From Candidatus Binatia bacterium (lineage in GTDB: Bacteria; Desulfobacterota; Binatia; UBA9968; JAJDTQ01), in assembly GCA_951813575.1 (NCBI GenBank), contig OX638375.1:2123042-2187041 (forward strand): DNA of 64,000 nt, in the 5' to 3' direction. A model generated the notes under the pieces. It saw nothing but the letters and a program-made list of their open reading frames with translations. It did not search any database and had not been told where the DNA came from. Shown in pieces: positions 34,999 through 52,140 of this stretch. Both the position numbers and the translations under genes were made by a program. Numbering within the stretch: the stretch's first letter is position 1; the number at the start of each line of letters is the position of its first letter.

Positions 34999-35850
34999 TC
35001 ACGCCGAGTACGGCGAAACGGGCGTGATGTTCCTGTAGTCCACCGGCAGGGGCTCGACCCGGACGCCGGCGTCGATCTCGGCCATGCGCACTTCGGTCAA
35101 CGGATAGCCGAAGGTTTCGTTGCGGAGCCTAAGGTGGACCATGGCCTTCTCGGTGATGATGCGGCGCGCCGTTTCGAGGTCGTCGTCGTCGCGGATGGCC
35201 TCGGCGATGCGGGGAATGTGGACGGGCCCGTGGCGCATTTCGTCATGGAAGATGATGCCCATGGCTTCGGCGATGGCCCTCTCGACGGCACCGCCGGAGT
35301 AGGAGGTGTAGGGGAGCTCGAGGATCCGGTTGCCGACGTAGAAGATGGCCGCGCCGGCGCCCTCCGAGAAACCGAGGGCCACCTCCGCAAGCTCCCCGTA
35401 GGTCTCCTGCAGCCGCCGGGTGGCCTCCACCTCGGCGGTCATGGCGGGCAGGTCGGGATGCCCCCTGCGTTCGCGCTGGCAGCCCGACAGGGCCATGAGC
35501 TCCCGGGGATCCGGTCTCTCCCCGGCGATCCGCTCCATGATGTCCGCCAAGAGCCGGTAATGCCGCGCTTCCTCGTAGACCGACCGCGCCGAGGCCTCGA
35601 AGGATCCCCGGCTCACCGCCGCCTCGATACCCGCGAGGTCGCCAGGCAGGGCCTGGAGCAGCCGTTCGACGGTGCCGAGCTCCCGCGCCGCCTGCAGCTT
35701 GAGCCAGTGCAGGTCGTCCTCCCGGGTCCGGGGATTCGAGAAATAGGTCCGCACCACTTCGGCCTCCCCGGCCCACCAGCGCAAAGGAGCGGCTTCGAGC
35801 ACGGCGATGCGCTCATCGAGTTGTCTTGCGTCCGGTCCGGCCTTTGCCAT
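34999..35850 (-). CDS. Ferritin-like di-iron protein A (unknown function)
   Basis: A 283-aa helical protein. It carries a complete four-helix di-iron pattern: Glu57; Glu94-x2-His97 (EEARHY); Glu163 (FSEGAG); Glu204-x2-His207 (DEMRHG). The same pattern, spacing and surrounding sequence occur in protein B at 46446. Ferritin-like proteins with this motif include oxygenases such as the PaaA/BoxB group, desaturases and rubrerythrins. I cannot place it in one of these. It precedes the DUF1989 gene on the same strand. No signal peptide or membrane segment is visible, so it is cytoplasmic. Confidence 0.7.
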   Translation of the reverse strand: MAKAGPDARQLDERIAVLEAAPLRWWAGEAEVVRTYFSNPRTREDDLHWLKLQAARELGTVERLLQALPGDLAGIEAAVSRGSFEASARSVYEEARHYRLLADIMERIAGERPDPRELMALSGCQRERRGHPDLPAMTAEVEATRRLQETYGELAEVALGFSEGAGAAIFYVGNRILELPYTSYSGGAVERAIAEAMGIIFHDEMRHGPVHIPRIAEAIRDDDDLETARRIITEKAMVHLRLRNETFGYPLTEVRMAEIDAGVRVEPLPVDYRNITPVSPYSA

Positions 35851-37784: not shown

Positions 37785-39242
37785 ATGCAGATGTTCATTG
37801 CAGGCGAGTACACCGATACCGCAAGCGGAGAGACCACCACCATTTACGATCCCGCCACCGGCGAGGTGGTGGACACCGTTCCCAAGGGCACGGCCGAGGA
37901 CGTGAAGCGGGCCGTGGCGGCCGCGGCAGAAGCGGCGGTGGAATGGGGCAAGTTCGCCCCGTCCAAGCGCGGCGAGTGCCTGTCCGAGGCCGCGCGTCTC
38001 GTGCTGGAGAACGAGAAGGAGCTCACGCAGCTCCTCACCAAGGAGCAGGGCAAGGCGCTGCGCGAGTCGGTGCTGGAGATCCGCCGCTTCGCCCACACCC
38101 TGGAGCACTACGCCGGCATGGCCAAGACCCTGCGCGGCGGCTACGTCAAGCTCGCCGACGGGCGCTACGGTCTCATCATGCACAAGCCCATGGGCGTGGT
38201 GGGCTCCATCGTGCCGTGGAACTTCCCGGTGTCGCTGATGGGCAACAAGGTGGGGCCGGCGCTGCTGGCCGGCAACGCCATGGTCATCAAGCCCGCCAGC
38301 ACCACGCCGCTGACCGCCACCCGGTGCGTCGAGCTGGTGCAGAAGGCGGGGCTTCCCAAGGGCACCATCAACATGGTCACCGGACCGGGCGGCGCCGTGG
38401 GCGAGGAGATCCTCCGCAACCCGGTCATCCGCAAGGTGGGCTTCACCGGCGCCACCGACACCGGCAAGCGGATCATGGAGGTGGCGGCCCAGGAGGTCAA
38501 GCGGGTCACCCTGGAGCTTGGCGGCAGCGACCCCATGATCGTGTGCAGCGACGCCAACATCGACCGGGCCGTGAGCGCGGCCTCGGTGGGCCGTTTCTTC
38601 AACTGCGGCCAGGCCTGCCTGGCGGTGAAGCGGCTCTACCTCTACGACGAGATCTACGACGAGTTCGTCGGCAAGCTGGTGGAGAAGGTACGCAAGCTCC
38701 GGGTGGGCAACGGCCTCACCAAGGGCACCATGCTCGGACCGCTGCACACCAAGGGGCAGCGCGAGGAGGTGGAGGAGCAGGTGGAGGACGCGGTGCAGAA
38801 GGGCGCCAAGGTGCTGGTGGGCGGCGACCGCCCCAAGGGCGACGACTTCGACAAGGGCAACTTCCTGAATCCGTCCGTGGTTGTGGACGTCGATCCCGCC
38901 TCCAAGCTGCTGTCGGACGAGGTGTTCGGCCCGGCCCTGCCGGTGGTGCGGATCAAGAACCTCGAGGAGGGCTTGACGCTGGCCAACGACTCCATCTTCG
39001 GACTGGGCTCCTCGGTGTGGACCCAGGACGTCGACAAGGCCATGTACGCGGCCGAGAAGCTGGACGCGGGCTACACCTGGGTCAACTCCGCGCAGATCAT
39101 CTACGACGAGCTGCCCTTCGGCGGCGTCAAGCAGAGCGGCGTGGGCAAGGAGCACGGCAACGAGGCCGTCGAGCACTACAGCGAGGTCAAGTCCGTGGTC
39201 ATGGCCACGGAGCAAACTTCCGAGATGGTGGGAGGCGAATAG
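37785..39242 (+). CDS. NAD(P)-dependent aldehyde dehydrogenase
   Basis: A 485-aa ALDH-superfamily enzyme. The catalytic Cys278 is in NCGQACLAV and the general-base Glu244 in VTLELGGSDP; GFTGATDTGK and SIVPWNFPVSL bind the nucleotide. It oxidises an aldehyde to the acid in the cytoplasm. The next gene encodes an acyl-CoA ligase, so an aromatic or heteroaromatic aldehyde is an attractive but unproven substrate. The start follows GAGGAGAG at good spacing. Confidence 0.9.
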   Translation: MQMFIAGEYTDTASGETTTIYDPATGEVVDTVPKGTAEDVKRAVAAAAEAAVEWGKFAPSKRGECLSEAARLVLENEKELTQLLTKEQGKALRESVLEIRRFAHTLEHYAGMAKTLRGGYVKLADGRYGLIMHKPMGVVGSIVPWNFPVSLMGNKVGPALLAGNAMVIKPASTTPLTATRCVELVQKAGLPKGTINMVTGPGGAVGEEILRNPVIRKVGFTGATDTGKRIMEVAAQEVKRVTLELGGSDPMIVCSDANIDRAVSAASVGRFFNCGQACLAVKRLYLYDEIYDEFVGKLVEKVRKLRVGNGLTKGTMLGPLHTKGQREEVEEQVEDAVQKGAKVLVGGDRPKGDDFDKGNFLNPSVVVDVDPASKLLSDEVFGPALPVVRIKNLEEGLTLANDSIFGLGSSVWTQDVDKAMYAAEKLDAGYTWVNSAQIIYDELPFGGVKQSGVGKEHGNEAVEHYSEVKSVVMATEQTSEMVGGE

Positions 39243-39311
39243 GCCGAACCCGTACCGGTACCCGCTGCCGAGGTCCGGCAGCGGCCCGGGTTCGCGCGAC
39301 TCGGGAGAAGA

Positions 39312-40865
39312 ATGAGCGCTCCGCGACTCGAACTGCCGGCTCCCTACAACGCGGCCACCACGTTCGTCGACGACAACGTCGCCGCCGGCCGCGGCGAGCG
39401 TACCGCGATCCTGTACCAGGACCGGCGGTTCAGCTACCGGCAGGTCCAGGAAGCGGTCAACCGGGCCGGAAACGCCTTCCGTGCCCTCGGCTTGGACACC
39501 GAGCAGCGTGTCCTGCTGGTGCTTCCCGACTCCCCGGAATTCGCCTTCAGCTTCTTCGGCGCCATCAAGATCGGCGCCGTCCCCATCCCCGTGAATCCCT
39601 GGATGAAGGCCGGGGACTACGAATATCTCCTCAACGACAGCCGGGCCCGCATCGTGGTGGTGCACGAGTCCGCGCTGCCGGAGATCGAGGCCATCCGGGA
39701 ACGGCCGCGCTACCTGCAACACGTCATCGTGGTGGGAGCCGCGGCAGGTGACGCCGCCGCGTGGGACGCCCTGCTGGAGGGCCAGTCCACGGAGCTCGAC
39801 GCCGAGCCCACCGGACGCGACGACGTGGTCATGTGGAACTACACGTCGGGCAGCACCGGCAACCCCAAGGGCGCCGTCCACCTCCACCACGACATGGTCA
39901 CCATCACGGACCTGTTCGTGAAGCCCGTGCTCGGCATGACCGAGGACGACGTCTGTTTCTCGGCATCCAAGCTGTTCTTCTCCTACGGTTTGGGCAACTC
40001 CCTCTACTTCCCTTTCCGCTTCGGCGCCGCCGGCGTGCTGTGGCCGGAAAAGCCGGATCCCGAAGGGATCCTCAGGACCATCGAACGGTACCGTCCCACC
40101 TTCTTCTTCTCGGTGCCCACCCTCTACGCGCGCATGTTGCGTGTGGAAAAGGAGTACGACCTCAGCTCGCTCCGGATCTGCCTGTCGTCCGGCGAACCGC
40201 TGCCGCCCGCCCTGTTCCACCAGTGGCGGGACAAGGTCGGCGTGGAACTGCTGGACGTGGTGGGCTCCACCGAGGCGACCCACGACTTCCTGGCCAACCG
40301 CCCGGGACGGGCCAAGGCCGGAAGCAGCGGCGAGGTCACGCCGGCCTTCGTCGCCAAGGTGGTGGACGACGAGGGACGGGAGGTACCCAACGGCGAGGTG
40401 GGAAACCTCTACGTCAGCGGCGACGCCACCGCGCCCTACTACTGGAACAAGCACGAGCAGACCCAGCGCACCATGCTCGGGGAGTGGCTCAAGACCGGCG
40501 ACACCTACTACCGCGACGACGACGGCTACTTCTGGTACTGCGGCCGCTCCGACGACATGCTCAAGGTGGGAGGGCTCTGGGTCTCGCCCATCGAGGTGGA
40601 GAACGCGCTGATGGAGCACCCGGCGGTGCTCGAGACGGCGGTGACCGGAGAGGCCGACGGCGACGGGCTCATCAAACCCAAGGCCTGGGTCATCCTCAAG
40701 ACCGAGCACCAGGGCGCCGACGGGTTGGCCCAGGAGCTGCAGGACTTCGTCAAGGGCAGCCTGGAGCCGTACAAGTACCCGCGCTGGGTGGAGTTCGTGG
40801 ACGACCTGCCCAAGACCGTCACCGGCAAGATCCAGCGGTTCAGGCTCAGGCAAGCGAACGGGTGA
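39312..40865 (+). CDS. Benzoate-CoA-ligase-family acyl-CoA synthetase
   Basis: A 517-aa adenylate-forming enzyme. The AMP-binding P-loop is YTSGSTGNPKGAVH, followed by FSASKLFFSYGLGN and ILSSGE-type SSGEPLPP, GSTEATHDF and WLKTGDTYYRDDDG. The C-terminal catalytic Lys lies in PKTVTGKIQRF. These features match the benzoate-CoA ligase branch, which activates aromatic or heteroaromatic acids to CoA thioesters with ATP. It follows the aldehyde dehydrogenase by 69 bp and precedes the class II aldolase by 19 bp, which suggests one operon. Confidence 0.9.
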   Translation: MSAPRLELPAPYNAATTFVDDNVAAGRGERTAILYQDRRFSYRQVQEAVNRAGNAFRALGLDTEQRVLLVLPDSPEFAFSFFGAIKIGAVPIPVNPWMKAGDYEYLLNDSRARIVVVHESALPEIEAIRERPRYLQHVIVVGAAAGDAAAWDALLEGQSTELDAEPTGRDDVVMWNYTSGSTGNPKGAVHLHHDMVTITDLFVKPVLGMTEDDVCFSASKLFFSYGLGNSLYFPFRFGAAGVLWPEKPDPEGILRTIERYRPTFFFSVPTLYARMLRVEKEYDLSSLRICLSSGEPLPPALFHQWRDKVGVELLDVVGSTEATHDFLANRPGRAKAGSSGEVTPAFVAKVVDDEGREVPNGEVGNLYVSGDATAPYYWNKHEQTQRTMLGEWLKTGDTYYRDDDGYFWYCGRSDDMLKVGGLWVSPIEVENALMEHPAVLETAVTGEADGDGLIKPKAWVILKTEHQGADGLAQELQDFVKGSLEPYKYPRWVEFVDDLPKTVTGKIQRFRLRQANG

Positions 40866-40884
40866 ACGCCCGTACGGGGGTTTC

Positions 40885-41586
40885 ATGGACGACTTGGTAG
40901 CGTTACGGGACAAGGTGGCCATCTCGTGCAACATCCTGGCCATCGACGGACACTGGGACAACATCCTGGGGCACGTATCGGCCCGGGTGCCGGGCGAGAA
41001 CGCGATGTTGATGAAGCCCCACAGCTACGGCTTCGAGGAGATCCGGCCGTACCACATCATCAAGGTGGACTTCGACGGCAACAAGATCGAGGGCGACTAC
41101 GAGCGCCACTCCGAGGTGTTCATCCACACCGAGATCTACAAGGCGCGCCCGGACGTGAACTGCGTCATCCACAGCCATCCGCCCTACGCCACGGCCTTCG
41201 GCGCCCTGAGGCAGCCGCTGCGTCCCGTGAGCCACGAGGGCTCCATCTTCCACGACGGGCTGCCGCTCTTCGACTACACCACGGTCCTTGTCCGGAGCCC
41301 GGAGCTGGGAGTGAAGGTGGCGGAGAAGCTGGCCCAGGCCCGGGCGGTGCTGATGAAGAACCACGGCACCACCGTCGTGGCCGAATCGGTGGAGACCGCC
41401 ACCCTGTACGCGATCTTTCTGGAGAAGGCGTGCCGCATCCAGCTCCTGGCCAGCGCATCGGGCGACCCCACCTGGAGCAGCGACGAGGAGGCGCGCGAGA
41501 AGTACGACCAGATCTACACGCCGCACCGACTGGGCAGCATGTGGGACTACTTCGTGCGGCGGGCGAAGCGGCTCGCCATCGACTGA
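40885..41586 (+). CDS. Class II aldolase/adducin-family protein
   Basis: A 233-aa protein. The zinc ligands are visible in CVIHSHPPYATAF (two His) and MKNHGTTVVAES (one His); DNILGHVSARVP is the N-terminal signature. Family members perform retro-aldol cleavage, epimerisation or decarboxylation of hydroxy acids. Its position 19 bp after an acyl-CoA ligase and 64 bp before a Pht5-like gene suggests a step in a ring-acid catabolic pathway, possibly decarboxylation as in 3,4-dihydroxyphthalate decarboxylases of this family. Confidence 0.88.
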   Translation: MDDLVALRDKVAISCNILAIDGHWDNILGHVSARVPGENAMLMKPHSYGFEEIRPYHIIKVDFDGNKIEGDYERHSEVFIHTEIYKARPDVNCVIHSHPPYATAFGALRQPLRPVSHEGSIFHDGLPLFDYTTVLVRSPELGVKVAEKLAQARAVLMKNHGTTVVAESVETATLYAIFLEKACRIQLLASASGDPTWSSDEEAREKYDQIYTPHRLGSMWDYFVRRAKRLAID

Positions 41587-41650
41587 ACCGACACCCCGCG
41601 TCGCCGGGAGCTCCGGTTTCCCCGACCGCGCGAGATTGGGAGGAAAAAGA

Positions 41651-42649
41651 ATGGCCGAGAAACTCCATCTGACACTCGCCTGCGGCGACTACGAGAGCAT
41701 CCGCGCCCTCAAGGAAGGCGTGATCCAGCCCGACGGCATCGAGCTCACGGTGCTTACCGACATGGACTCGTCCACGCGGCACTGGCGCATCGCCCGGTTC
41801 CGCGAGTTCGACGTGGGCGAGCATTCCGGCTCGTCCTACCTGCTGGCCAAGGACCGCGGCGAAGCGGACGACCTGACCGCCATCCCGGTGTTCCTGCACC
41901 GCCGGTTCCGCCACGGCTTCATCTTCGTCAACGCGGACAAGGGCATCCAGTCGCCCAAGGACCTCATCGGCAAGACCGTGGGGCTCAAGAACTGGCAGGC
42001 CACCGCGCTCCTGTGGATCCGCGGCACCCTGCAGGACGAGTACGGCGTCTCGTTCACGGACCTGGAATGGCGCGCCGAGAGGGAGGAGGACGTGCCGTTC
42101 GATCCGCCGGAGGGGCTCCGGATGGAGCGCCTGCCCAAGGGCAAGCGGGTCGAGGAGATGCTCGCCGAGGGCGAGCTGGACGCGGTCATCCACCCCGACA
42201 TCCTCGCGCCCATGCTGGAAGGCGACACCCGGGTCAGGCGCCTCTTCGACGATCCCAAGCAGGTGGAGATGGACTACTTCCAGCGCACCGGCATCTTTCC
42301 CATCATGCACACGACGGTCATCAAGCGGGAGATCGTGGAAAAGCACCCCTGGGTGCCCATGAACCTGATGGTGGCGTTCGAGAAGGCCAAGCAGTGGACC
42401 TACAACCGCATGAACAACCCCCGGATCGTGCCGCTGGCGTTCTTCCGGGACGCCTGGGAGGAGCAGTTGGAGCAGATGGGCGAGGACCCGTGGGTCTACG
42501 GGCTCAACGACACCAACCGCAACAACTTCGGCACGCTGGCGCGCTACTCCCGCGAGCAGGGCATGTGCAGGAACGAAGCCGACGTGGACGAGCTCTTCCA
42601 CGAGTCGGTCCGCGGCGAGGAGTGGAAGCTGGCGCGCTCGCGTGGCTGA
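41651..42649 (+). CDS. 4,5-dihydroxyphthalate decarboxylase (Pht5)-like protein
   Basis: A 332-aa protein with the type II periplasmic-binding-protein fold but no signal peptide. It opens LHLTLACGDYESIRALKEG, the characteristic start of Pht5-type proteins. Further in are VGEHSGSSYLLAK and IPVFLHRRFRHGFIF. Some members decarboxylate 4,5-dihydroxyphthalate; others are annotated as transporter binding proteins. The cytoplasmic location and catabolic neighbours favour an enzyme. GGGAGG precedes the ATG at 41651; an earlier in-frame start overlaps that site. Confidence 0.8.
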   Translation: MAEKLHLTLACGDYESIRALKEGVIQPDGIELTVLTDMDSSTRHWRIARFREFDVGEHSGSSYLLAKDRGEADDLTAIPVFLHRRFRHGFIFVNADKGIQSPKDLIGKTVGLKNWQATALLWIRGTLQDEYGVSFTDLEWRAEREEDVPFDPPEGLRMERLPKGKRVEEMLAEGELDAVIHPDILAPMLEGDTRVRRLFDDPKQVEMDYFQRTGIFPIMHTTVIKREIVEKHPWVPMNLMVAFEKAKQWTYNRMNNPRIVPLAFFRDAWEEQLEQMGEDPWVYGLNDTNRNNFGTLARYSREQGMCRNEADVDELFHESVRGEEWKLARSRG

Positions 42650-42664
42650 CGCGCGCCCTTTGAA

Positions 42665-43552
42665 ATGATCCCTCCCCCCTTCGAGTACCGGGCGCCGGAA
42701 TCGCTTCCGGAGACGCTCGCGCTGCTCCGCGAGCACGGGGACGAGGCGCGCCTGATGGCGGGAGGGCAATCACTCCTGCCCATGCTCAAGCTGCGGCTGG
42801 TCCGTCCGGCGGTCATCGTCGATATCGGGCGGCTCCAGGAGTTGGACGGCATCCGGGAAGAAGCGAATACGGTGCGCCTGGGCGCCCTGGTGACGGAGCG
42901 CACCCTCGAACGCAAGCTGGAACAGCGCCTGCCGCTCCTTTCGGAGGCCGCCGCGAGCATCGGCGACATTCACATCCGCAACCTCGGCACCCTCGGCGGC
43001 ACCCTGTGCCAGGCGGACCCCTCGGGCGACCTCGCCCCCGCGGCGCTGGCGCTGGAGGCCACCCTGACGGCGCAATCCACGGATGGAAGCCGCGCCATTG
43101 CGGCCCATGAGTTCTTTTCCGGTCCGTTCGACACCTGTCTGGCCGACGACGAGATGGTGACGGGGGTCGAGGTGCCGGCGGCAGATCCGGAGAGTGTCCG
43201 CGGGCATGGCTACATCAAGCTCGCCCGCCGGGCCGGCGACTACGCGGTGGTAGGAGCCGCGGCGCTGGTGAGCCTGGGGCCGGACGGGTCCTGCAGGGAT
43301 GGACGCGTCGCCCTGTGCGCGGTGGGTCCCACGGCGTTCCTGTGCGAAGCCGCGGGCCGGTCACTCCAGGGCACCCGACTGACCGACGCCGATCTCGCGG
43401 AAGCCGCCGACCTGGCCGGGAACGAAGCGGACCCGGTGAGCGACGTCCACGCGTCGGCGGAGTACCGGAGGGCCATGACCCCGGTGGTGGTGAACCGGGC
43501 CCTGACCAGGGCGCGGGAAAGGGCGCGGGCGAGTCACGCGCAAAGACCGTAA
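42665..43552 (+). CDS. Molybdenum hydroxylase, FAD-binding medium subunit (CoxM type)
   Basis: A 295-aa subunit. The FAD-binding motifs are AGGQSLLPMLKLRL and IRNLGTLGGTLCQADPSGD, both typical of CoxM/CutM. It passes electrons from the FeS clusters of the small subunit to FAD and an external acceptor. It starts 15 bp after the Pht5-like gene and 10 bp before the FeS subunit, so the three hydroxylase genes are one operon with the upstream genes. Confidence 0.93.
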   Translation: MIPPPFEYRAPESLPETLALLREHGDEARLMAGGQSLLPMLKLRLVRPAVIVDIGRLQELDGIREEANTVRLGALVTERTLERKLEQRLPLLSEAAASIGDIHIRNLGTLGGTLCQADPSGDLAPAALALEATLTAQSTDGSRAIAAHEFFSGPFDTCLADDEMVTGVEVPAADPESVRGHGYIKLARRAGDYAVVGAAALVSLGPDGSCRDGRVALCAVGPTAFLCEAAGRSLQGTRLTDADLAEAADLAGNEADPVSDVHASAEYRRAMTPVVVNRALTRARERARASHAQRP

Positions 43553-43562
43553 CCGCGGAATC

Positions 43563-44033
43563 ATGCAACGGATCACCCTCCACACCACCATCAACGGCAA
43601 GGAGTTCTCGTTCGAGGTGGAGCCGCGGCTGCTGCTGGTGGACCTCATCCGCGACAAGGCCGGCCTCAAGGGCACCCACGTGGGCTGCGACACCGGCAAC
43701 TGCGGCGCCTGCACGGTGGTCATGAACGGCGTGACCGTGAAGTCGTGCCAGGTGCTGGCGCCCCGAGCCGGAGGGGCGGACATCCGCACGGTGGAAGGGC
43801 TGGCCCGGGACGGAACGCTGCATCCGATCCAGGAAGCCTTCTGGGAGTGCGACGGGCTGGAGTGCGGCTTCTGCACCCCCGGCATGCTCATGACCACAGC
43901 GGCGTTCCTCGAAGAGAATCCCCATCCGTCGGACCAGGAGATCCGCCGTGCCTATTCCGGCAACCTGTGCCGCTGCACCGGTTACCTGAACATCATCAAG
44001 GCGGTGAAACGGGCGGCGGAGACGACAGGCTGA
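43563..44033 (+). CDS. Molybdenum hydroxylase, [2Fe-2S] small subunit (CoxS type)
   Basis: A 156-aa protein with two [2Fe-2S] clusters: the plant-ferredoxin type uses Cys42, Cys47, Cys50 and Cys62 (GCDTGNCGAC...C), and the second uses Cys101, Cys104, Cys136 and Cys138 (ECGFCTPGM...CRCTGY). Both are complete. It links the molybdenum site of the large subunit to FAD in the medium subunit. It starts 10 bp after the medium-subunit stop. Confidence 0.95.
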   Translation: MQRITLHTTINGKEFSFEVEPRLLLVDLIRDKAGLKGTHVGCDTGNCGACTVVMNGVTVKSCQVLAPRAGGADIRTVEGLARDGTLHPIQEAFWECDGLECGFCTPGMLMTTAAFLEENPHPSDQEIRRAYSGNLCRCTGYLNIIKAVKRAAETTG

Positions 44034-44043
44034 TCGGACGACC

Positions 44044-46449
44044 ATGGCGACCTACGTCGGCAAGAGCATCAAGCGCAAGGAGTCCTTCGACTCCATCCAG
44101 GGGAAGAACACCTACATCGGCGACGTCGAGGTCCCCGGCATGCTCCATGCCGCCATCCACCGAAGTCCCCACGCCCACGCCCGCGTGACGCGGGTGGACC
44201 TGTCCGAAGCGCTGGCGCAGCCCGGCGTCGTGGCGGCCATGAGCGGTCAGGACGTCCGGCGGCTGTCCCGGCCCCTGGCGCCCTTCCCCTTCACCCGGAC
44301 CAAGCCGTACACCAGCGACTATCCCCGGGTGCGGTTCGCCGACCACTACGGCCTGGCGGTGGACCGGGTGCGTCACGTGGGCGAGGCGGTGGCGGTGGTG
44401 GTGTCGGAGGACCGCTACGCGGCGGCGGACGCGGCGGAGGCGGTGCGGGTGGAATACGAGCCGCTGCCGCCGGTGGTGGACGTGGAGGCCGCGCTGGAGC
44501 GGGGGACCGTCCGGCTCTACGAGGAGTGGCCCGACAACATCCAGTACGAGTTCCGTTTCAGCGAGGGGCCGGTGGAGGAACTGCTGGAGGAGGCCCCGGT
44601 GGTGATCCGGGAGCGCATCGTGCAACACCGGTACACCGGAACGCCCATGGAGCCCCGGGGAGTCATCGCCAGCGTCGACCAGCGGGACAACCTGCTGACG
44701 CTGTGGTCGTCCACCCAGGTGCCGCACGCGCTTCCCAACCTGGTGCTGGAAACCCTCGGCCGCGCGGACCTCAAGATCCGGGTGATCTCGCCCACCATGG
44801 GAGGCGGCTTCGGCATCAAGTGGGCATTCTATCCCGAAGAGGTGCTGATGCCGCTCTTGTCGCTCCAGCTCAACCGGCCGGTGGGCTGGCGGGAGAGCCG
44901 CAGCGAGCACATGGTGGCCTCACACCATTCCCGGGCGCAAGTGGACCATGTGGAGGCGGGCTTCGACCGGGCCGGCCGCATCACGGCCCTCAAGACCCAT
45001 GTGATCGTGGACCTGGGCGCCGCCTACCCCAGCGGCGGCACCTCCCTGGCCTTCGTCACCGCCAACTTCATTCCCGGGCCCTACCGGGTCGACAACTACG
45101 CCACCACGTCCTTCGGCGTGGTCACCAACAAGACCGCCGCGGGCCCCCACCGGGCCAACGGCAAGGCCGAGTCCAACTTCATCATGGAGCGGGTGATGGA
45201 CCGGGCCGCGCTGGAGCTGGGCCTGGGCAAGGACGAGATCCGGCGCCGCAACCTGATCCAGCCCCACGAGTTCCCCTACACCTGCGTCACCGGGTCCACC
45301 TACGACAGCGGCGATTACCCCGCGTGCCTGCGGAAGGCGCTGGCGGAGGCGGACTACGCCGGCCTGCTCGCGGACCGGGACCGGTGCCGCCTGGAAGGGC
45401 GCTACCGGGGCGTCGGGCTGGCGTTCCTGCTGGAGCCCCTCAGCTCGCTCCGGCCCAATGCCTACAACGCGGGCTACGAGACCGTGACGGTGCGGGTGGA
45501 CCCGGTGGGCAAGGCCTGGGTGTTCTCGGGCGACGTGAACATGAGCATGAGCCACATGACCACCCTGTCCCAGGTGGTGGCGGACGAGCTGGGCGTACGC
45601 TTCGAGGACGTGCAGGTGTTCGAGGGCGACAGCGCCCTGGTCTCGGCGTCCAGCGGATCCTACGCCAGCCGGTTCTCGACGGTGACGATTTCGGCGGCCA
45701 TCAAGGCCAGCCGCGCGGTGCGGACGAAGATACTGGCCATCGCCGCGCACTCGCTCCGGACCCATCCCGAGGCCCTCGAATGCACCGGCGGCATGATTCT
45801 GGGCCGGGACAAGCCGGGCGTCGCCCTCACGGTCAAGGAAGTGGCCAACATCGCCTACTACTCCATCAACCAACTGCCGGGGAACATGGATCCGGGCCTG
45901 CACGACACCCACTATTTCATCAATCCCAACACCAGCTTCGAGCCGGACGCCAAGGGGCGGACGTCGAACTTCTCGACCTTTCCCTACGCCGTAAACTTGG
46001 CTTACGTGGAAGTCGACGTGGCCACCGGCGACACCCAGATCCTGAAGTATCTCACCGTGGACGACTCCGGCAACCTGTTGAACCCGATGATCGTCGACAC
46101 CCAGATCACCGGGGCCATCTCCCACGGCATCGGGGGCGCGTTTCTCGAAGAGCTGGTGTATGACGAGCAGGGACAGCTCCTGTCCGGCACCTTCGCCGAC
46201 TACCTGATCCCGTCCATGGCGGAGATGCCGGACCTGGAGATCCATCACATGGTGACGCCCATGCCCTTCACCCCGGGCGGGTTCAAGGGGGTTGGGGAGA
46301 TCGGCGCCATCGGCCCGCCGGTGGTGCTGGCCAGCGCCATCGAGGATGCGCTGGCGCCGCTGGGGGTCAAGATCATGAGTCTGCCGCTCAAGCCGGAGAA
46401 CATCTGGCGGGCGATACACGAAAAACGAGGAACAGGAGACAAGCGATGA
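44044..46449 (+). CDS. Molybdenum hydroxylase, molybdopterin-binding large subunit
   Basis: An 801-aa xanthine-oxidase-family subunit. MGGGFGIK, AGPHRANGKAESNF and GGFKGVGEIGAIG bind the molybdopterin cofactor; the Glu in VGEIG is the expected catalytic base. The form I CO-dehydrogenase loop with a Cys (VAYRCSFR) is not present, so it is not a CO dehydrogenase. Substrates of the family are N-heterocycles, aldehydes and aryl-CoA thioesters, such as 2-furoyl-CoA. The adjacent CoA ligase makes an acyl-CoA substrate plausible. Its stop overlaps the ferritin-like start by 4 nt. Confidence 0.9.
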   Translation: MATYVGKSIKRKESFDSIQGKNTYIGDVEVPGMLHAAIHRSPHAHARVTRVDLSEALAQPGVVAAMSGQDVRRLSRPLAPFPFTRTKPYTSDYPRVRFADHYGLAVDRVRHVGEAVAVVVSEDRYAAADAAEAVRVEYEPLPPVVDVEAALERGTVRLYEEWPDNIQYEFRFSEGPVEELLEEAPVVIRERIVQHRYTGTPMEPRGVIASVDQRDNLLTLWSSTQVPHALPNLVLETLGRADLKIRVISPTMGGGFGIKWAFYPEEVLMPLLSLQLNRPVGWRESRSEHMVASHHSRAQVDHVEAGFDRAGRITALKTHVIVDLGAAYPSGGTSLAFVTANFIPGPYRVDNYATTSFGVVTNKTAAGPHRANGKAESNFIMERVMDRAALELGLGKDEIRRRNLIQPHEFPYTCVTGSTYDSGDYPACLRKALAEADYAGLLADRDRCRLEGRYRGVGLAFLLEPLSSLRPNAYNAGYETVTVRVDPVGKAWVFSGDVNMSMSHMTTLSQVVADELGVRFEDVQVFEGDSALVSASSGSYASRFSTVTISAAIKASRAVRTKILAIAAHSLRTHPEALECTGGMILGRDKPGVALTVKEVANIAYYSINQLPGNMDPGLHDTHYFINPNTSFEPDAKGRTSNFSTFPYAVNLAYVEVDVATGDTQILKYLTVDDSGNLLNPMIVDTQITGAISHGIGGAFLEELVYDEQGQLLSGTFADYLIPSMAEMPDLEIHHMVTPMPFTPGGFKGVGEIGAIGPPVVLASAIEDALAPLGVKIMSLPLKPENIWRAIHEKRGTGDKR

Positions 46450-47309
46450 GCGAGGCAGGAAACGGTTTCACGGAACGGGCGACGCGGGAGCTGGCGCGGG
46501 TGGCGGCGGTCTTCGCCGCGGGCGAGGCGGAGATCGCCGACACCTACTTCAACTGGGACCAGCGGGACCGGGAAAAGGAGGTCCTCTGGCTCACCAAGCA
46601 GGCGGGCCGGGAAATCGAAAGCACCTTCACGGGCCTCAAGGAGGTCGTCGAGAAGGTGGGCGGCGACTTCATGAAGTCGGACCAGTACTGGGTCGACCGG
46701 TGGGGCGGCGACGTGGACCGGAACTGGCTGGAGGAGAACCTCTGGCGCACCAAGCAGGAGCTCAACCACGGCAACCGGTGCGTGGATATCATCGAATGGC
46801 TCACGGGCGAGCCCGTGGACATCAAGGAAGTGGTGCGCCGCTACAACCGCTGGACCCCGGATCCGTCGCTGCCGGACATGAAGGAATGGGTGCGGCTGGC
46901 GGAGGTGTTCAAGGAGCAGGAGGCCCGCCAGGAACCTTGGGCGCGGCTCATCAACTCCCAGGGATTGCTCGAGGGCGGCAGTTGCGGCCTGTTCTACGCG
47001 GCATCCCAATTGAGCGGCAGCGAGCTCAACGACCGCCTTTCCGAGGCCTTCACCGTGGTGCTCGACGACGAGCGCGGCCACGGGCCGGCCAACATCTACC
47101 AGATCGCCGACGCCTTCACCGCGCGAGAGGCGGTGGACGGCGCCAGAGGACTCATGGTGGAGCGCGGCATCCAGAGGCTGCGCATGCGCAACGAACAGTT
47201 CAGCTTTCCCATCGACGAAGCCCGCATCCAGGACATCGCGGCGGGCAACATCGGCCTCGACGTGACCAAGGCCATCTGGGGCGAGACCCTGGCGAAGTTC
47301 ATCGACTGA
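46446..47309 (+). CDS. Ferritin-like di-iron protein B (unknown function)
   Basis: A 287-aa helical protein, paralogous to protein A at 34999. Its di-iron residues are Glu56, Glu105-x2-His108 (QELNHG), Glu176 (LEGGSC) and Glu209-x2-His212 (DERGHG), spaced as in protein A. The region LRMRNEQFSFPIDEARIQDIAAG also matches protein A closely (RLRNETFGYPLTEVRMAEIDAG). The ATG overlaps the hydroxylase stop (ATGA), so translation is coupled. It is likely to act in the same pathway, as a monooxygenase-like or oxygen-handling component; this is inference. Confidence 0.72.
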   Translation: MSEAGNGFTERATRELARVAAVFAAGEAEIADTYFNWDQRDREKEVLWLTKQAGREIESTFTGLKEVVEKVGGDFMKSDQYWVDRWGGDVDRNWLEENLWRTKQELNHGNRCVDIIEWLTGEPVDIKEVVRRYNRWTPDPSLPDMKEWVRLAEVFKEQEARQEPWARLINSQGLLEGGSCGLFYAASQLSGSELNDRLSEAFTVVLDDERGHGPANIYQIADAFTAREAVDGARGLMVERGIQRLRMRNEQFSFPIDEARIQDIAAGNIGLDVTKAIWGETLAKFID

Positions 47310-47337
47310 ACGCCGTCAGGCCGAGGAAAACCGGATA

Positions 47338-48120
47338 GTGGCCTCCTGCATCGATCTAGACGCCAAAGACGGCGTTGCCTTCATCACGCTGAACCGGCCC
47401 GAGCGGCTCAACGCCATGAACGAGGCGATGTGGGCGGATCTGGGCCGGGTATGGGACGCGTTCGCGGCGGACCCGGCGCTTCGGGTGGCGGTGGTGAGCG
47501 GCGCCGGTGAGCGGGCGTTCTCCACCGGAATGGACCTGAAGGAGCGGGCGGTGGCGGGTGATCCACGGGCGAGGGAGTTCTGGACCTCGGCCCTGGCCCG
47601 GGACCCGGGGCGCCGGGAGCCCGTGTGGAAGCCCATGATCGCCGCGGTGCACGGGTACTGCCTGGCCGGGGGCTTCGAGATCGCCCTTTCCTGCGACATC
47701 CGCATCTGCAGCGAAGACGCCACCTTCGGCCTGCCGGAGATCAAGCGGGGGTTCTTTCCCGGCAGCTCGGGGACCGTGCGGCTGCCGCGCATCGTGCCGT
47801 TGGGGATGGCCCTGGAGATGCTCTATACCGGCGAGTCCATCTCCGCGGACGAAGCCTTCCGCTGCGGCCTGGTGAACCGGGTGGTGCCGCGGGACGAGCT
47901 GTTGCCGGCGGCGGAGAAGCTGGCCCGGTCCATCGCCGACGGGCCGCCGCTGGCCCTGCAGGCGGTCAAGGAGGTGGTGCTCCGCAGCCTCGACCTGCCG
48001 CTGGCCGACGCCGTCCGTTTCGAGGCCGGGTTCCGCGCCATGGTGGGCGGCACCGAGGACGCCGGCGAAGGCCCACGGGCCTTCAGCGAGAAGCGGAAGC
48101 CGCGGTACAAGGGGCGCTAG
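47338..48120 (+). CDS. Enoyl-CoA hydratase/isomerase-family (crotonase) protein
   Basis: A 260-aa crotonase-fold protein. VAFITLNRPERLNAMNEAM, the oxyanion segment AFSTGMDLKE and AAVHGYCLAGGFEIALSCDI are present; GLPEIKRGFFPGSSG aligns with the second catalytic region, where Glu and Gly positions vary among functions. Members hydrate enoyl-CoA, isomerise, or hydrolyse CoA thioesters. In furoate degradation the corresponding enzyme (HmfE) belongs to this family. The GTG start follows CCGAGGAAAACC. Confidence 0.88.
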   Translation: MASCIDLDAKDGVAFITLNRPERLNAMNEAMWADLGRVWDAFAADPALRVAVVSGAGERAFSTGMDLKERAVAGDPRAREFWTSALARDPGRREPVWKPMIAAVHGYCLAGGFEIALSCDIRICSEDATFGLPEIKRGFFPGSSGTVRLPRIVPLGMALEMLYTGESISADEAFRCGLVNRVVPRDELLPAAEKLARSIADGPPLALQAVKEVVLRSLDLPLADAVRFEAGFRAMVGGTEDAGEGPRAFSEKRKPRYKGR

Positions 48121-48169
48121 CGCGCGGCGCCGACGGATCCGCGACGCGGCGACACGGGAGAGGACCCAC

Positions 48170-49801
48170 ATGTACCAGGATCTCCGGGAATACCTCGAAC
48201 TGCTTGACCGGCAAGGGCTGTTGCTGCGGGTGGCCGCTCCGGTGGACAAGGACACCGAGCTGCATCCACTGGTGCGCTGGCAGTTCCTGGGACTGCCGGA
48301 TCACCAGCGCAAGGCGTTCCTGTTCGACAACGTGACGGATGCCAAGGGCCGGCGCTACGAGACCCCTGTGGTGGTGGGTGCGCTGGCGTCCAACGAGGCC
48401 ATCTACGCCCTGGGCATGGGCTGCGAGCCCGGCAAGAGCTTCGAGAAGTGGTCCGCGGCGGTGGCCGCGCCGCTGGCGCCGGAGCTGGTGGACACGGGCC
48501 CGGTCAAGGAGGAGATCCACGTCGGCGACGGCCTCCTGGAGCACGGCGGCCTGGACGAGTTCCCGGTGCCCATCTCGACGCCGGGGTTCGACAACGGTCC
48601 CTACTTCACCGCCTGCCACTGGATCACCAAGGACCCGGACACCGGCATCCGCAACGTCGGCAACTACCGCGGCCAGATCAAGTCTCCCACCAAGACCGGC
48701 GTCTACCTCATCAGCGCCCAGCAGGACCTGGCCATCCACTGGAACAAGGCCAGCGCCCTGGGCCGGCCCCTGCCCGCGGCGGGCGTCATCGGCGCGGTGC
48801 CGTGCCTGTCGTATGTGGCGGTGCAGAAGATCGCCTACGGGGTGGACGAGCTGGGCGTGGCCGGCGCCATCCTGGGCCGGCCCATGCCGCTGGTGAAGTG
48901 CGAGACCGTGGACCTGGAGGTGCCGGCCGACGCGGAGATCGTCATCGAGGGCTACATCCGCACGGATCGGCTCGAGCCCGAGGGCCCCTTCGGGGAGTCC
49001 CACGGCTACATGGACCCGCGCAGCCTGAGCCCGGTGTTCGAGGTGACCTGCATCACCCACCGGAGGAACCCGCACTACGTGGGCGTGCTGAGCCAGGTGA
49101 CGCCCAGCGAGAGCAGCAAGATCAAGCACCGGGGCTGGGAGTCGCTGGTGCTGGACCACCTGCGCAACCATTGCAGCCTCAAGAGCGTGGTCCGGGTGGG
49201 CATGCACGAGCCTTTGGTGAACCTGCGCCAGTTCGTGGTGGTGCAGATGCGCAAGACCCACAAGCTCGAGCCCTGGCAGGCCATGATGGCGGTGCTGGGC
49301 TTCCGCTACGACCTCGGCAAGGTGGTGATCGCCGTGGACGACGACATCGACCCCGAGAACCTCGCAGCGGTCAACTGGGCCATCTGCCATCGCTCGCAGC
49401 CGCACAAGGACGTGCGCATCATCGAGGGCCGCCAGACCGTGCACTCGCCCATCAACCTGGTGCGCATGCACGGCCACGCCGGCGACTACGACAGCGAGGA
49501 CTCGTCGCTGCTCATCGACGCCACCAAGAAGGCCGAGTTCCCGCCGGTGTCGCTGCCCACCCGGGAGTACATGGAACGGGCGCGGAAACTGTGGGAGGAG
49601 CTCGGGATGCCGGAGCTCAAGTACGGCAACCCGTGGCACGGCTATTCCCTGGGCCTGTGGCCGTCGGAGCTCGACGAGGAGGCGGCGCTGGCGGTCCAGG
49701 GGGAGCACCACCGCATCGGCGCCAAGCTCGACGAGCGCGCCGTGCCCGTAGAGCGCGGCGAGCGGCTGCAGGACGTGCAGAAGCGATGGAAGCCCGAGTG
49801 A
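48170..49801 (+). CDS. UbiD-family prenylated-FMN decarboxylase
   Basis: A 543-aa enzyme. The expected prFMN/active-site segments are IRNVGNYRGQIKSPTKTG (Arg) and LEPEGPFGESHGYMDP (catalytic Glu pair). UbiD enzymes (de)carboxylate aromatic and heteroaromatic acids, such as 4-hydroxybenzoate derivatives and 2,5-furandicarboxylate (HmfF). They need prenylated FMN from UbiX, whose gene is not in the window. It follows the crotonase gene by 49 bp and the permease gene starts 15 bp after it. Confidence 0.9.
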   Translation: MYQDLREYLELLDRQGLLLRVAAPVDKDTELHPLVRWQFLGLPDHQRKAFLFDNVTDAKGRRYETPVVVGALASNEAIYALGMGCEPGKSFEKWSAAVAAPLAPELVDTGPVKEEIHVGDGLLEHGGLDEFPVPISTPGFDNGPYFTACHWITKDPDTGIRNVGNYRGQIKSPTKTGVYLISAQQDLAIHWNKASALGRPLPAAGVIGAVPCLSYVAVQKIAYGVDELGVAGAILGRPMPLVKCETVDLEVPADAEIVIEGYIRTDRLEPEGPFGESHGYMDPRSLSPVFEVTCITHRRNPHYVGVLSQVTPSESSKIKHRGWESLVLDHLRNHCSLKSVVRVGMHEPLVNLRQFVVVQMRKTHKLEPWQAMMAVLGFRYDLGKVVIAVDDDIDPENLAAVNWAICHRSQPHKDVRIIEGRQTVHSPINLVRMHGHAGDYDSEDSSLLIDATKKAEFPPVSLPTREYMERARKLWEELGMPELKYGNPWHGYSLGLWPSELDEEAALAVQGEHHRIGAKLDERAVPVERGERLQDVQKRWKPE

Positions 49802-49816
49802 CGGGCACTCTCCGCC

Positions 49817-50566
49817 ATGGAGCTTGACGGCACCCTGGTCCTGGTTGCCGCGGCCATCTTCTTCGCGGGCTTCGTCAAGGGCGCCGCCGGCATGGGCTTC
49901 CCGCTCATCGCCACCCCCATGCTGACGCTGCTGCTCGACATCCGCATGGCCATCGTCGTGCTGGTGCTGCCCAGCGTCGTGATGGACCTGAGCCAGATCT
50001 TTCGCCACGGCGTCCCCACCGCCACCTTCCGGCGCTTCTCGTCCATGTTCCTGTTCGCGTTGGCGGGCGTGTTCCTCGGCACCTGGGAGCTGACCCAGCT
50101 CCCTCTGTGGGTGTTGAACCTGATCCTGGGAACGGTGGTGATCCTCTTCGCGGGGTCCGGGCTGTTCTCGTTCACCCTTACCACCTCGCCCCGGGCGGAG
50201 CCGGTGATGTCCCCGGTCATGGGATTCGCCGGCGGCTTCTTCCTGGGCCTGACCAACACCATGGGGCCGGTCATGGCCCTCTATCTGCACGGCTTGAGGC
50301 TCGACAAGGCCGACTTCGTGAAGGCCATCTCCACCGCCTTCATCATGGCCAAGTTCTGGCAGATCGTGGCCATCTCCACGTGGGGCTTGTTCACCATCGA
50401 GGCCATGAAACTCTCGCTGTTCGTCACCGCGTTCATTCTCGTGAGCTTCTACCTGGGCCTGAAGGCGCAGGACCGGATCCGCCAGCAGACGTTCAACCGG
50501 GGCATCCTGTTGCTGCTGATCTGCACCGGGCTGATGCTGGTCTACCGCGCCCTGAACGCGGCTTAG
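49817..50566 (+). CDS. TauE/SafE-family membrane permease
   Basis: A 249-aa protein with about 8 hydrophobic segments. The family pattern FAGFVKGAAGMGFPLIATPMLTLLLD lies in the first helix pair and GFAGGFFLGLTNTMGPVMALYLHG in the second half. Members export sulfite, sulfoacetate and related organic acids. At the end of a ring-acid operon it may move a substrate or organic acid product. It starts 15 bp after the UbiD stop. Confidence 0.87.
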   Translation: MELDGTLVLVAAAIFFAGFVKGAAGMGFPLIATPMLTLLLDIRMAIVVLVLPSVVMDLSQIFRHGVPTATFRRFSSMFLFALAGVFLGTWELTQLPLWVLNLILGTVVILFAGSGLFSFTLTTSPRAEPVMSPVMGFAGGFFLGLTNTMGPVMALYLHGLRLDKADFVKAISTAFIMAKFWQIVAISTWGLFTIEAMKLSLFVTAFILVSFYLGLKAQDRIRQQTFNRGILLLLICTGLMLVYRALNAA

Positions 50567-50706
50567 CGCCCGACCCGGCTGCAGGTTTGTCCGCCCGCAA
50601 TGCGCCCGCCGGTGACATCTTTGCCCGCTATCTGCTATTGAGATTCTGCGAAGACTGGCGTCCCAAGCGATCCGGAGCTGAACCGACTGCGACGGACACA
50701 CAACTC

Positions 50707-52140
50707 ATGCAGGCTTTCGACTACGACGTCATCGTCATCGGCAGCGGCCCCGCGGGCTACACCGCCGCCGTTCAGGCGTGCGAGCTCGGCGCCAGGGTCG
50801 CCGTCCTCGAGCGGCAGGAGACCCTGGGCGGCATCACGCTGCTTTCGGGCACCATCCCCAGCAAGACCTTGCGCGAGGCCATCATCTACCTTCGCGGGGT
50901 CCGCCAGCGCCCCTTCTACGGAACCGATTTCACCGAAAAGAAAGACATTACCCTCTCGGACCTGTTCATCCGGGTTCGGAAAGTGGTGGAACGGCGGGTG
51001 GGGACCATGGAGGACCAACTGCAGGTCTACCGCGACCGGAACCGGATCGACGTCTTCCGCGGCTACCATGCGACCCTGGACGGTCCCAACTCGGTGCACG
51101 CCTGGGTACTCAAGAACCCCATGGAGGCCATCACCCTGAAGGCGGAGAAGATCATCATCGCCGCGGGCTCGAGGCCTCGCTTCGTGCCCGACATACCCAT
51201 CGACAACGAAGTCATTTTCGACTCCGACTCCGTGTTCACCCTGGAGTTCAAGCGCAAGTCCCTGCCGGAATCCCTGATCGTCGTCGGCGCGGGGGTCATC
51301 GGAGCGGAGTACGGCTCGGCGTTCGCGGTTGTGGGCTGCAAGGTATCGCTGATCCAGCGTGACCACACTTTCCTGACGTTCGCCGAGCGTTCCATCGTCG
51401 ATTTGCTGATCCGGCGCATGGAGGACTACGGCGTGGAGTTCGTCTGGGGTGCCTGGTACGACAAGATCGAGCGGATGTCCGGTTGGGAGGAGAAGGCCCG
51501 GGTCTCGCTGGCCGACGGCCGGGTGCTGGAGGCGGACGCAGTGATCGTGGCCAGCGGACGCGAGGTGGCGGTCAAGGTCCTGGGGCTGGAGGACGTGGGG
51601 GTGGAGACCACCGAGCACGGGCTGATCAAGGTCAACGAGCTGTTCCAGACATCGGTGCCGAGCATCTATGCCGCCGGCGACGTGGTGGGCTTCCCGGCCC
51701 TGGCCTCCACCAGCAGCGAGCAGGGCCGCATGGCCGCCAACTACGCGCTGGGACGCCGGGCGGGCGGGCGCAGGACGCTGTTCCCCATGTGCGTCTACAC
51801 CATCCCCGAGATCGCCATGGTGGGCTATACCCAGCAGGAGCTGGAAGCCAAGGGCATCCCTTACGCCAAGGGCGTGGCCGCCTACGACGAGATCACCAAG
51901 GCCGGCATCATCGGCGACTCGCACGGTATGCTCACCATGCTGTTCGAGCCCAACGGCGGGCACTTGCTCGGTGTGCACATCATCGGCGACCAGGCCTGCG
52001 AGCTGATTCACATCGGGCAGGCGGTGCTGAGCTACAACGGCACCATCGACTACTTCATCGACAATGTGTTCAACTTCCCGACCATGGGGGAGGCCTACAA
52101 GATCGCGGCCCTGAACGGGGTCAAGGGACTCGGCGCCTGA
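50707..52140 (+). CDS. Soluble transhydrogenase/dihydrolipoamide dehydrogenase-like flavoprotein
   Basis: A 477-aa pyridine nucleotide-disulfide oxidoreductase-family protein. The FAD site is IVIGSGPAGYTAAVQA, the NAD(P) site IVVGAGVIGAEYGSAFA, and the second FAD motif IYAAGDVVG. Where disulfide reductases have CxxxxC, it reads GGITLLSGTIPSKTL with no Cys, so it cannot have a redox disulfide. The SGTIPSK context is like the soluble transhydrogenase SthA. The likely role is NADPH/NADH balancing. The C-terminal interface HIGQAVL is of SthA type. Confidence 0.82.
   Translation: MQAFDYDVIVIGSGPAGYTAAVQACELGARVAVLERQETLGGITLLSGTIPSKTLREAIIYLRGVRQRPFYGTDFTEKKDITLSDLFIRVRKVVERRVGTMEDQLQVYRDRNRIDVFRGYHATLDGPNSVHAWVLKNPMEAITLKAEKIIIAAGSRPRFVPDIPIDNEVIFDSDSVFTLEFKRKSLPESLIVVGAGVIGAEYGSAFAVVGCKVSLIQRDHTFLTFAERSIVDLLIRRMEDYGVEFVWGAWYDKIERMSGWEEKARVSLADGRVLEADAVIVASGREVAVKVLGLEDVGVETTEHGLIKVNELFQTSVPSIYAAGDVVGFPALASTSSEQGRMAANYALGRRAGGRRTLFPMCVYTIPEIAMVGYTQQELEAKGIPYAKGVAAYDEITKAGIIGDSHGMLTMLFEPNGGHLLGVHIIGDQACELIHIGQAVLSYNGTIDYFIDNVFNFPTMGEAYKIAALNGVKGLGA

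What the first reader, a model, noticed from the sequence alone, without database searches (positions are those of the whole stretch)
44044..47309. Di-iron protein translationally coupled to a molybdenum hydroxylase
The ferritin-like gene B starts inside the stop region of the large hydroxylase subunit (ATGA at 46446-46449). Such overlaps usually indicate partners in one pathway or complex. A di-iron protein as a fourth component of a xanthine-oxidase-type operon is not an arrangement I know.
Basis: partly seen in the sequence, partly recalled or inferred. Interest (0 to 1): 0.6.

Follow-up and report, generated by a model that had tools for sequence, protein, structure and literature searches.

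The report
Di-iron protein added to hydroxylase operon
In one genus of uncultured, partly sponge-associated Binatia-type bacteria, a gene for an unclassified ferritin-like protein, probably holding two iron atoms, sits directly after a molybdenum hydroxylase in a catabolic operon; relatives of the operon without it and relatives of the protein elsewhere indicate a separately recruited pathway enzyme, probably an oxygenase, and not a fourth hydroxylase subunit.

Summary
B (46446-47309) starts inside the coxL stop (ATGA, 46446-46449), has its own Shine-Dalgarno, is under purifying selection and keeps a complete ferritin-type ligand set (E56, E105xxH108, E176, E209xxH212). It matches no Pfam, NCBIfam or solved sequence; a few family members match DUF455 or rubrerythrin weakly. 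Adjacency holds in 9/9 genomes of the genus (overlap in 8/9). It stops at the genus: the nearest outside orthologue of the operon (coxL 69%, UbiD 76%) lacks B, a 49% paralogous operon in the same genome runs coxMSL-ECH without B, and none of 21 coxL loci fetched outside the genus has B beside it. B's relatives form clades, each with another conserved partner: a 3-hydroxyanthranilate-dioxygenase-like cupin (11 genera), an Amidohydro_2 decarboxylase-like protein, UbiD/SDR, or a thiolase plus PF14518 protein. The operon looks composite: ALDH-ligase-aldolase-Pht5-like and coxMSL-UbiD exist apart in other families. Best reading: B is a free-standing di-iron oxygenase-type enzyme recruited into an aromatic or furan-acid pathway, not a hydroxylase subunit. 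The substrate is unknown. Geobacillus plasmid pHTA426 shows a parallel: an R2lox in a similar cluster.

The parts
46446..47309 (+). B: 287-aa ferritin-like, probably di-iron protein; putative ligands E56, E105xxH108, E176, E209xxH212, plus invariant E27, Q52, R248, N249
44044..46449 (+). coxL-type molybdenum-binding large subunit (801 aa); GxGE catalytic glutamate E752; GPHRANG at 367-373 in place of the CO dehydrogenase Cys loop
43563..44033 (+). coxS-type subunit with two [2Fe-2S] domains
42665..43552 (+). coxM-type FAD subunit (295 aa)
46434..46438 (+). Shine-Dalgarno-like AGGAG of B, inside coxL, 7 nt before the ATG
   Evidence: sequence; similar site in all nine orthologues
47338..48120 (+). 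enoyl-CoA hydratase/isomerase family (crotonase) protein
48170..49801 (+). UbiD-family decarboxylase; nearest solved sequences are 6h6x/6h6v
49817..50566 (+). TauE/SafE-type permease
50707..52140 (+). Si-specific NAD(P)+ transhydrogenase-like flavoprotein (above the NCBIfam cut-off)
37785..39242 (+). aldehyde dehydrogenase, first gene of the co-directional run
39312..40865 (+). benzoate-CoA ligase family protein (TIGR02262, 600 bits against a cut-off of 375)
40885..41586 (+). class II aldolase/adducin family protein; weak similarity to 3,4-dihydroxyphthalate decarboxylase PhtC, below cut-off
41651..42649 (+). NMT1-like protein of the 4,5-dihydroxyphthalate decarboxylase family (9jp7, E 1.8e-54), more likely an enzyme than a transport protein
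34999..35850 (-). gene A: paralogue of B (31% identity), 11 kb upstream, opposite strand

Best explanation
B is a ferritin-like dinuclear-iron enzyme that was recruited into a composite aromatic- or furan-acid catabolic operon in the ancestor of this genus. It most likely activates O2 on a (hetero)aromatic or aryl-CoA intermediate of the pathway (hydroxylation, epoxidation or oxidative decarboxylation). It works beside the molybdenum hydroxylase, which takes its oxygen from water, and the UbiD decarboxylase; it is not a subunit of the hydroxylase. The overlap keeps its expression tied to the operon. Shown: gene structure, conservation, ligand pattern, limits of the adjacency, existence of the operon's two halves as separate operons elsewhere. 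Inferred: metal content, O2 activation, substrate, position in the pathway.
For: Complete ferritin-type ligand set conserved across 42 divergent relatives, with an all-helical model at mean pLDDT 84 that aligns to di-iron oxygenases and R2-type proteins. Some relatives hit DUF455 (best 4.1e-7) and rubrerythrin (2.7e-4). Relatives sit beside catabolic enzymes in clade-specific sets: 3-HAO-like cupin in 11 genera, Amidohydro_2 decarboxylase-like proteins, UbiD, a Pht5-like protein. The operon order is conserved in the genus. Operons without B exist. The ALDH-ligase-aldolase-Pht5-like module stands alone in families f2 and f3.
Against: No family hit for B itself, and no biochemistry. No dedicated reductase or ferredoxin was recognised in the operon; only a transhydrogenase-like flavoprotein is near. 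Structural Z-scores of 10-13 are within the range that unrelated helical bundles can reach (note). In clade C (L005, L033, L060) E176 is replaced by R, so part of the family may have another function. Two clades (the CinA neighbours and an f3 group) have no catabolic neighbour among the markers tested.
Confidence: 0.55

Rival explanations
1. B is a fourth, integral component of the molybdenum hydroxylase: a subunit or a dedicated electron-transfer partner.
For: ATGA overlap in 8 of 9 genomes, strict adjacency in 9 of 9 within the genus.
Against: The 69% orthologous operon of G132 has coxM, coxS and coxL without B, and that genome has no family member even at E 0.1. A 49% paralogue in the same genome is coxMSL-ECH without B. 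None of the 21 coxL loci fetched outside the genus has a B-family gene beside it. The three usual subunits are complete.
Confidence: 0.1
2. B is a protective, rubrerythrin-like peroxidase or iron-handling protein that removes peroxide made by the hydroxylase or guards an iron enzyme; this would also suit the pairing of relatives with 3-HAO-like iron dioxygenases.
For: Weak rubrerythrin and DUF455 hits in relatives, borderline symerythrin match; frequent pairing with oxygen-handling enzymes.
Against: No rubredoxin domain in the 287-aa sequence. Clade-specific partner sets and six diverged paralogues in one genome suggest substrate specialisation more than a housekeeping role.
Confidence: 0.2
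3. B helps the neighbouring UbiD decarboxylase, for example by oxidative maturation of its prenylated flavin.
For: B, clade C and the HAO clade of this genus have UbiD genes within a few kb. Maturation helpers of other types exist (LpdD, PMC10865409; PhdC, PMC13040415; abstracts).
Against: The f4, f16 and f17 clades and most HAO-clade members have no UbiD marker nearby. The UbiD of G132 lies in a genome without a B-family gene.
Confidence: 0.05
4. The adjacency is a neutral co-transcription accident: B serves an unrelated function and simply shares the transcript.
For: The genome has many coxL-like and six B-family genes, so a chance neighbour is not very improbable. The whole region is syntenic in the genus, so adjacency of one pair adds little.
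Against: Overlap kept in 8 of 9 genomes and tight packing of the operon. Relatives repeatedly lie in catabolic gene sets.
Confidence: 0.1

Closest known systems
DUF455 (PF04305) and rubrerythrin (PF02915) families of the ferritin-like superfamily
   Same: Eight and five members of the B family, respectively, match weakly; ferritin-type E / ExxH / E / ExxH ligand pattern
   Different: B itself matches neither; longer N-terminal helix with invariant E27; conserved RNE motif (248-250) after the last ligand helix
R2lox (R2-like ligand-binding oxidase), GKP26 of Geobacillus kaustophilus plasmid pHTA426
   Same: Ferritin-like dinuclear oxidase family encoded in a cluster with a CoxL-type hydroxylase, CoA ligases, crotonase, UbiD and ALDH; similar ligand spacing around ExxH-E-ExxH (from memory)
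   Different: No significant sequence similarity (E 0.30 for a single comparison); located several genes from the hydroxylase; partner proteins only 28-39% identical
hmf (furfural/furoate/HMF) degradation clusters
   Same: CoA ligase, three-subunit molybdenum hydroxylase and UbiD decarboxylase are shared logic (PMC6678421, PMC12064950); an ALDH and a crotonase are also present
   Different: Window operon adds a class II aldolase-like protein, a Pht5-like protein, B and a transhydrogenase; true Hmf sequences could not be compared; the two halves are separate operons in other families
Box and Paa aerobic CoA-thioester epoxidation pathways
   Same: Aryl-CoA ligase + ferritin-like di-iron enzyme + crotonase + ALDH (from memory)
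   Different: No PaaA/BoxB family match; no reductase component recognised; contains a molybdenum hydroxylase

Membership tests
Xanthine oxidase family (CoxL-type molybdenum hydroxylase) | MoCoBD_1/2 and a/b hammerhead domains; two [2Fe-2S] domains; FAD_binding_5 and CO_deh_flav_C subunit | tested here: met
Xanthine oxidase family (CoxL-type molybdenum hydroxylase) | catalytic glutamate in GxGE | tested here: met
   KGVGE (E752) aligns with KGIGE, KGLGE and KGMGE of 8uem, 7dqx and 1t3q
Aerobic CO dehydrogenase | TIGR02416 equivalog score and Cys-containing active-site loop | tested here: not met
   468 bits against 991; GPHRANG in place of the Cys loop
4-hydroxybenzoyl-CoA reductase | TIGR03193/03194/03195 equivalog scores | tested here: not met
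   176/391/104 bits against cut-offs 258/995/405
Ferritin-like di-iron carboxylate superfamily | E / ExxH / E / ExxH ligand pattern | tested here: met
   E56, E105xxH108, E176, E209xxH212; E176 replaced by R in one clade
Ferritin-like di-iron carboxylate superfamily | four-helix-bundle fold | tested here: inconclusive
   model pLDDT 84; best Z 12.8 TenA, 12.0 MiaE and CADD, 11.0 R2, within the range for helical bundles; no Foldseek hit below 0.001
Ferritin-like di-iron carboxylate superfamily | binds a dinuclear metal site | not testable with these tools
   needs purified protein
Any Pfam or NCBIfam family for B | match to a curated model | tested here: not met
   no match up to E 10 in Pfam or up to 0.001 in NCBIfam
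R2lox | sequence or fold homology to R2lox | tested here: inconclusive
   BLASTP E 0.30; 4ac8 at Z 10.3
hmf furoate/HMF cluster | CoA ligase, molybdenum hydroxylase, HmfE-type protein and UbiD together | tested here: inconclusive
   gene types present; the identity of HmfE as a crotonase is from memory; orthology to true Hmf proteins not testable here

The most novel reading that the evidence does not exclude
B belongs to an undescribed family of dinuclear-iron aromatic oxygenases that has spread through catabolic operons of Binatia, and in this operon the molybdenum hydroxylase donates the two electrons it gains from water-based hydroxylation to O2 activation at B. That would be a redox-neutral hydroxylase-oxygenase pair that spends no NADH.
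Probability: 0.05. Interest if true: 0.8.

Novelty: new variant of a known kind. Interest (0 to 1): 0.42.

Why it matters
The gene pair itself is a lineage-specific arrangement. The protein family behind it may matter more: up to six diverged copies per genome, no database family for B, a near-invariant di-iron ligand set, and conserved pairing with different aromatic-catabolism enzymes, most strikingly a 3-hydroxyanthranilate-dioxygenase-like cupin in 11 genera. If these are oxygenases, they add a route of O2-dependent aromatic attack in an uncultured class. The pHTA426 parallel also gives a hint for the open question of what R2lox oxidises.

Tried and rejected
Pfam, NCBIfam and PDB sequence searches of B: no credible match (the two PDB rows are a designed protein and a short chance stretch). 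Plasmid collection with B and two relatives: no match. A profile of the family over 395 genomes of the phylum: only G181 outside the own genome; by its own list the search reached few of the class members found, because genomes were drawn evenly from the phylum, so the true spread is not established. R2lox outside pHTA426 next to a hydroxylase: the other plasmid hits are distant R2-like proteins of haloarchaea whose surroundings I did not examine. First considered that the NMT1 protein was a transporter part: rejected by the 4,5-dihydroxyphthalate decarboxylase match. CO dehydrogenase and 4-hydroxybenzoyl-CoA reductase identities rejected by score and loop. A heme-oxygenase-like (HDO) fold for B was considered because TenA, CADD and UndA rank high, but B has ExxH twice and lacks the HxxxDxxH pattern of HDO proteins (pattern from memory). 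A paper search for a ferritin-like and molybdenum-hydroxylase pairing gave nothing relevant.

Full report
WHAT IS THERE. The coordinates are right. coxL (44044-46449) ends in TGA inside the ATG of B (46446-47309). B has an AGGAG seven bases before its start, so re-initiation is possible but not needed. The genes form a co-directional run from 37785 to 52140: ALDH, benzoate-CoA-ligase family protein, class II aldolase family protein, NMT1-like protein, coxM, coxS, coxL, B, crotonase (ECH), UbiD, TauE/SafE permease, Si-specific NAD(P) transhydrogenase-like flavoprotein, followed by branched-chain-type ABC transport genes. The NMT1-like protein is best matched by a solved 4,5-dihydroxyphthalate decarboxylase (9jp7, E 1.8e-54) and is therefore more likely an enzyme than a transport protein. 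The UbiD is nearest to 6h6x/6h6v, which from memory is the furandicarboxylate decarboxylase HmfF. The hydroxylase is CoxL-like but fails the CO dehydrogenase and 4-hydroxybenzoyl-CoA reductase cut-offs and carries the catalytic glutamate at E752.

IS B A DI-IRON PROTEIN? No Pfam, NCBIfam or PDB sequence family recognises B. An alignment of 42 relatives has twelve invariant columns, among them E27, E56, E105, H108, D208, E209, H212, R248 and N249; E176 is kept in 39 of 42. E56, E105xxH108, E176 and E209xxH212 form the classical ferritin-like pattern. From memory, the spacings 105-176-209 resemble those of R2 and R2lox. Eight relatives match DUF455 (best 4.1e-7) and five match rubrerythrin. The AlphaFold model (mean pLDDT 84, pTM 0.85) is all-helical and aligns to TenA, CADD, MiaE, R2 and R2lox at Z 10-13. 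That is compatible with the assignment but no proof for helical bundles, and Foldseek has no significant hit. I have no coordinates, so the geometry of the site is untested. dN/dS of 0.08-0.20 shows purifying selection.

HOW FAR DOES THE ADJACENCY GO? Nine of nine genomes of the genus hold the orthologue (87-100% identity), always directly after coxL and, where the contig continues, before ECH. The ATGA overlap is present in eight. The whole block is syntenic in the genus, so this is one conserved block, not many independent observations. Outside the genus it is absent. The closest hydroxylase operon elsewhere, in G132 (another family of the same order), has coxL 69%, coxS 78%, coxM 51% and UbiD 76%, with a cyclase, a TPP enzyme and an IclR regulator, but no B, no CoA ligase and no ALDH in the 20-kb stretch read. 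That genome shows no family member up to E 0.1. A paralogous operon in the same genome (coxL 49%) has coxMSL followed at once by an ECH gene and no B. Of the thirty coxL loci fetched, the nine of the genus have B and the other 21 do not (flanks of at most 1.5 kb, some cut by contig ends).

WHERE ARE B'S RELATIVES? The genome has six family members. A tree of 74 members (quick method, several long branches) separates clades that each keep their own neighbours. The HAO clade lies directly downstream of a cupin close to 3-hydroxyanthranilate 3,4-dioxygenase (122-132 bits, below the cut-offs of 146 and 220). This holds in 10 genera of families f2 and f3 and in the present genus, same strand, with gaps of up to about 210 bases. 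In the present genus that set also holds an Amidohydro_2 protein whose nearest solved relatives are gamma-resorcylate, 5-carboxyvanillate and aminocarboxymuconate-semialdehyde decarboxylases, an SDR and a UbiD. The sister clade of B lies between an Amidohydro_2 protein and a glycine C-acetyltransferase-like protein. Clade C lies near SDR, DUF1932 and UbiD. Gene A's clade lies near a Pht5-like protein in G133 (L045). The f4 clade lies with a PF14518 iron-containing redox protein, a thiolase and, in most, a sodium symporter. The clade beside CinA and an f3 group have no catabolic marker. So the family is repeatedly associated with catabolism of (hetero)aromatic acids, but with the hydroxylase in one clade only.

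THE OPERON IS COMPOSITE. ALDH, ligase, aldolase-like and Pht5-like genes occur as a separate module at 60-77% identity in families f2 and f3, followed in most by an SDR and an isocitrate-lyase-like gene near dnaA/dnaN (the last three read by eye), without hydroxylase or B in the stretches read. coxMSL-UbiD-TauE has its counterpart in G132. The window operon looks like a fusion of the two, with B, ECH and the transhydrogenase added. This is an inference from gene content and identity; I did not reconstruct it on a tree.

HOW IT MOST LIKELY WORKS. The ligase activates an aromatic or furan acid; the hydroxylase adds a hydroxyl group from water; decarboxylases (UbiD, perhaps the Pht5-like and aldolase-like proteins) trim the ring acid; B activates O2 on an intermediate; the crotonase and ALDH process the opened product. 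Every step here is an inference from family membership. The order is not known, and in G132 the hydroxylase-UbiD pair has no ligase beside it, so the CoA-thioester assumption is not secure. Confidence that B is a separate pathway enzyme of oxygenase type is 0.55.

WHAT IS KNOWN. A ferritin-like dinuclear protein in a cluster with this kind of hydroxylase is not unique: plasmid pHTA426 of Geobacillus kaustophilus has an R2lox (GKP26) in a cluster with ALDH, UbiD, CoA ligases, CoxL-type subunits and a crotonase. The authors of PMC10867098 note GKP26 and ask whether it hydroxylates aromatics. B and GKP26 are not detectably similar in sequence, so if real this is a parallel solution. hmf clusters share the ligase, hydroxylase and UbiD logic.

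VERDICT. Moderate interest, mainly for the family.

Noticed in passing
L050, L051, L052, L059, L084-L086, L096, L097, L101, L103, L104, L106, L107, L110: A 3-hydroxyanthranilate-dioxygenase-like cupin gene lies directly upstream of a B-family gene in 11 genera of three families; this pairing is far wider than the hydroxylase one.
   Followed up: partly
L042, L043, L044, L049, L055, L068, L069, L112, L113: In family f4 the B-family gene follows a PF14518 iron-containing redox protein and a thiolase-like gene, with a sodium symporter downstream in most: two putative iron-oxygen proteins side by side.
   Followed up: partly
L072 (NC_006509.1): R2lox GKP26 of Geobacillus kaustophilus lies in a plasmid cluster with UbiD, CoA ligases, CoxL-type hydroxylase, crotonase and molybdenum cofactor genes, a hint about its unknown substrate.
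   Followed up: partly
window 37785-52140; L182-L186; L164: The window operon appears to be a fusion of two modules that stand apart in other families (ALDH-ligase-aldolase-Pht5-like; coxMSL-UbiD-TauE).
   Followed up: yes
window 34999-35850: Gene A, a 31% paralogue of B on the minus strand 11 kb upstream; its orthologue in G133 (L045) lies near a Pht5-like protein gene.
   Followed up: partly
L005, L033, L060: One clade of the family has R in place of the near-invariant E176, a presumed metal ligand, so its site may be changed or lost.
   Followed up: no
whole genome G000: Large expansion of coxL-like genes (43 first-look candidates), at least 9 Pht5-like and at least 5 UbiD genes in a 4.2-Mb genome.
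   Followed up: no
L071 and L164: UbiD plus CoxL-type hydroxylase with a thiamine-pyrophosphate enzyme in both Neorhizobium and G132, a possible pathway of its own.
   Followed up: no
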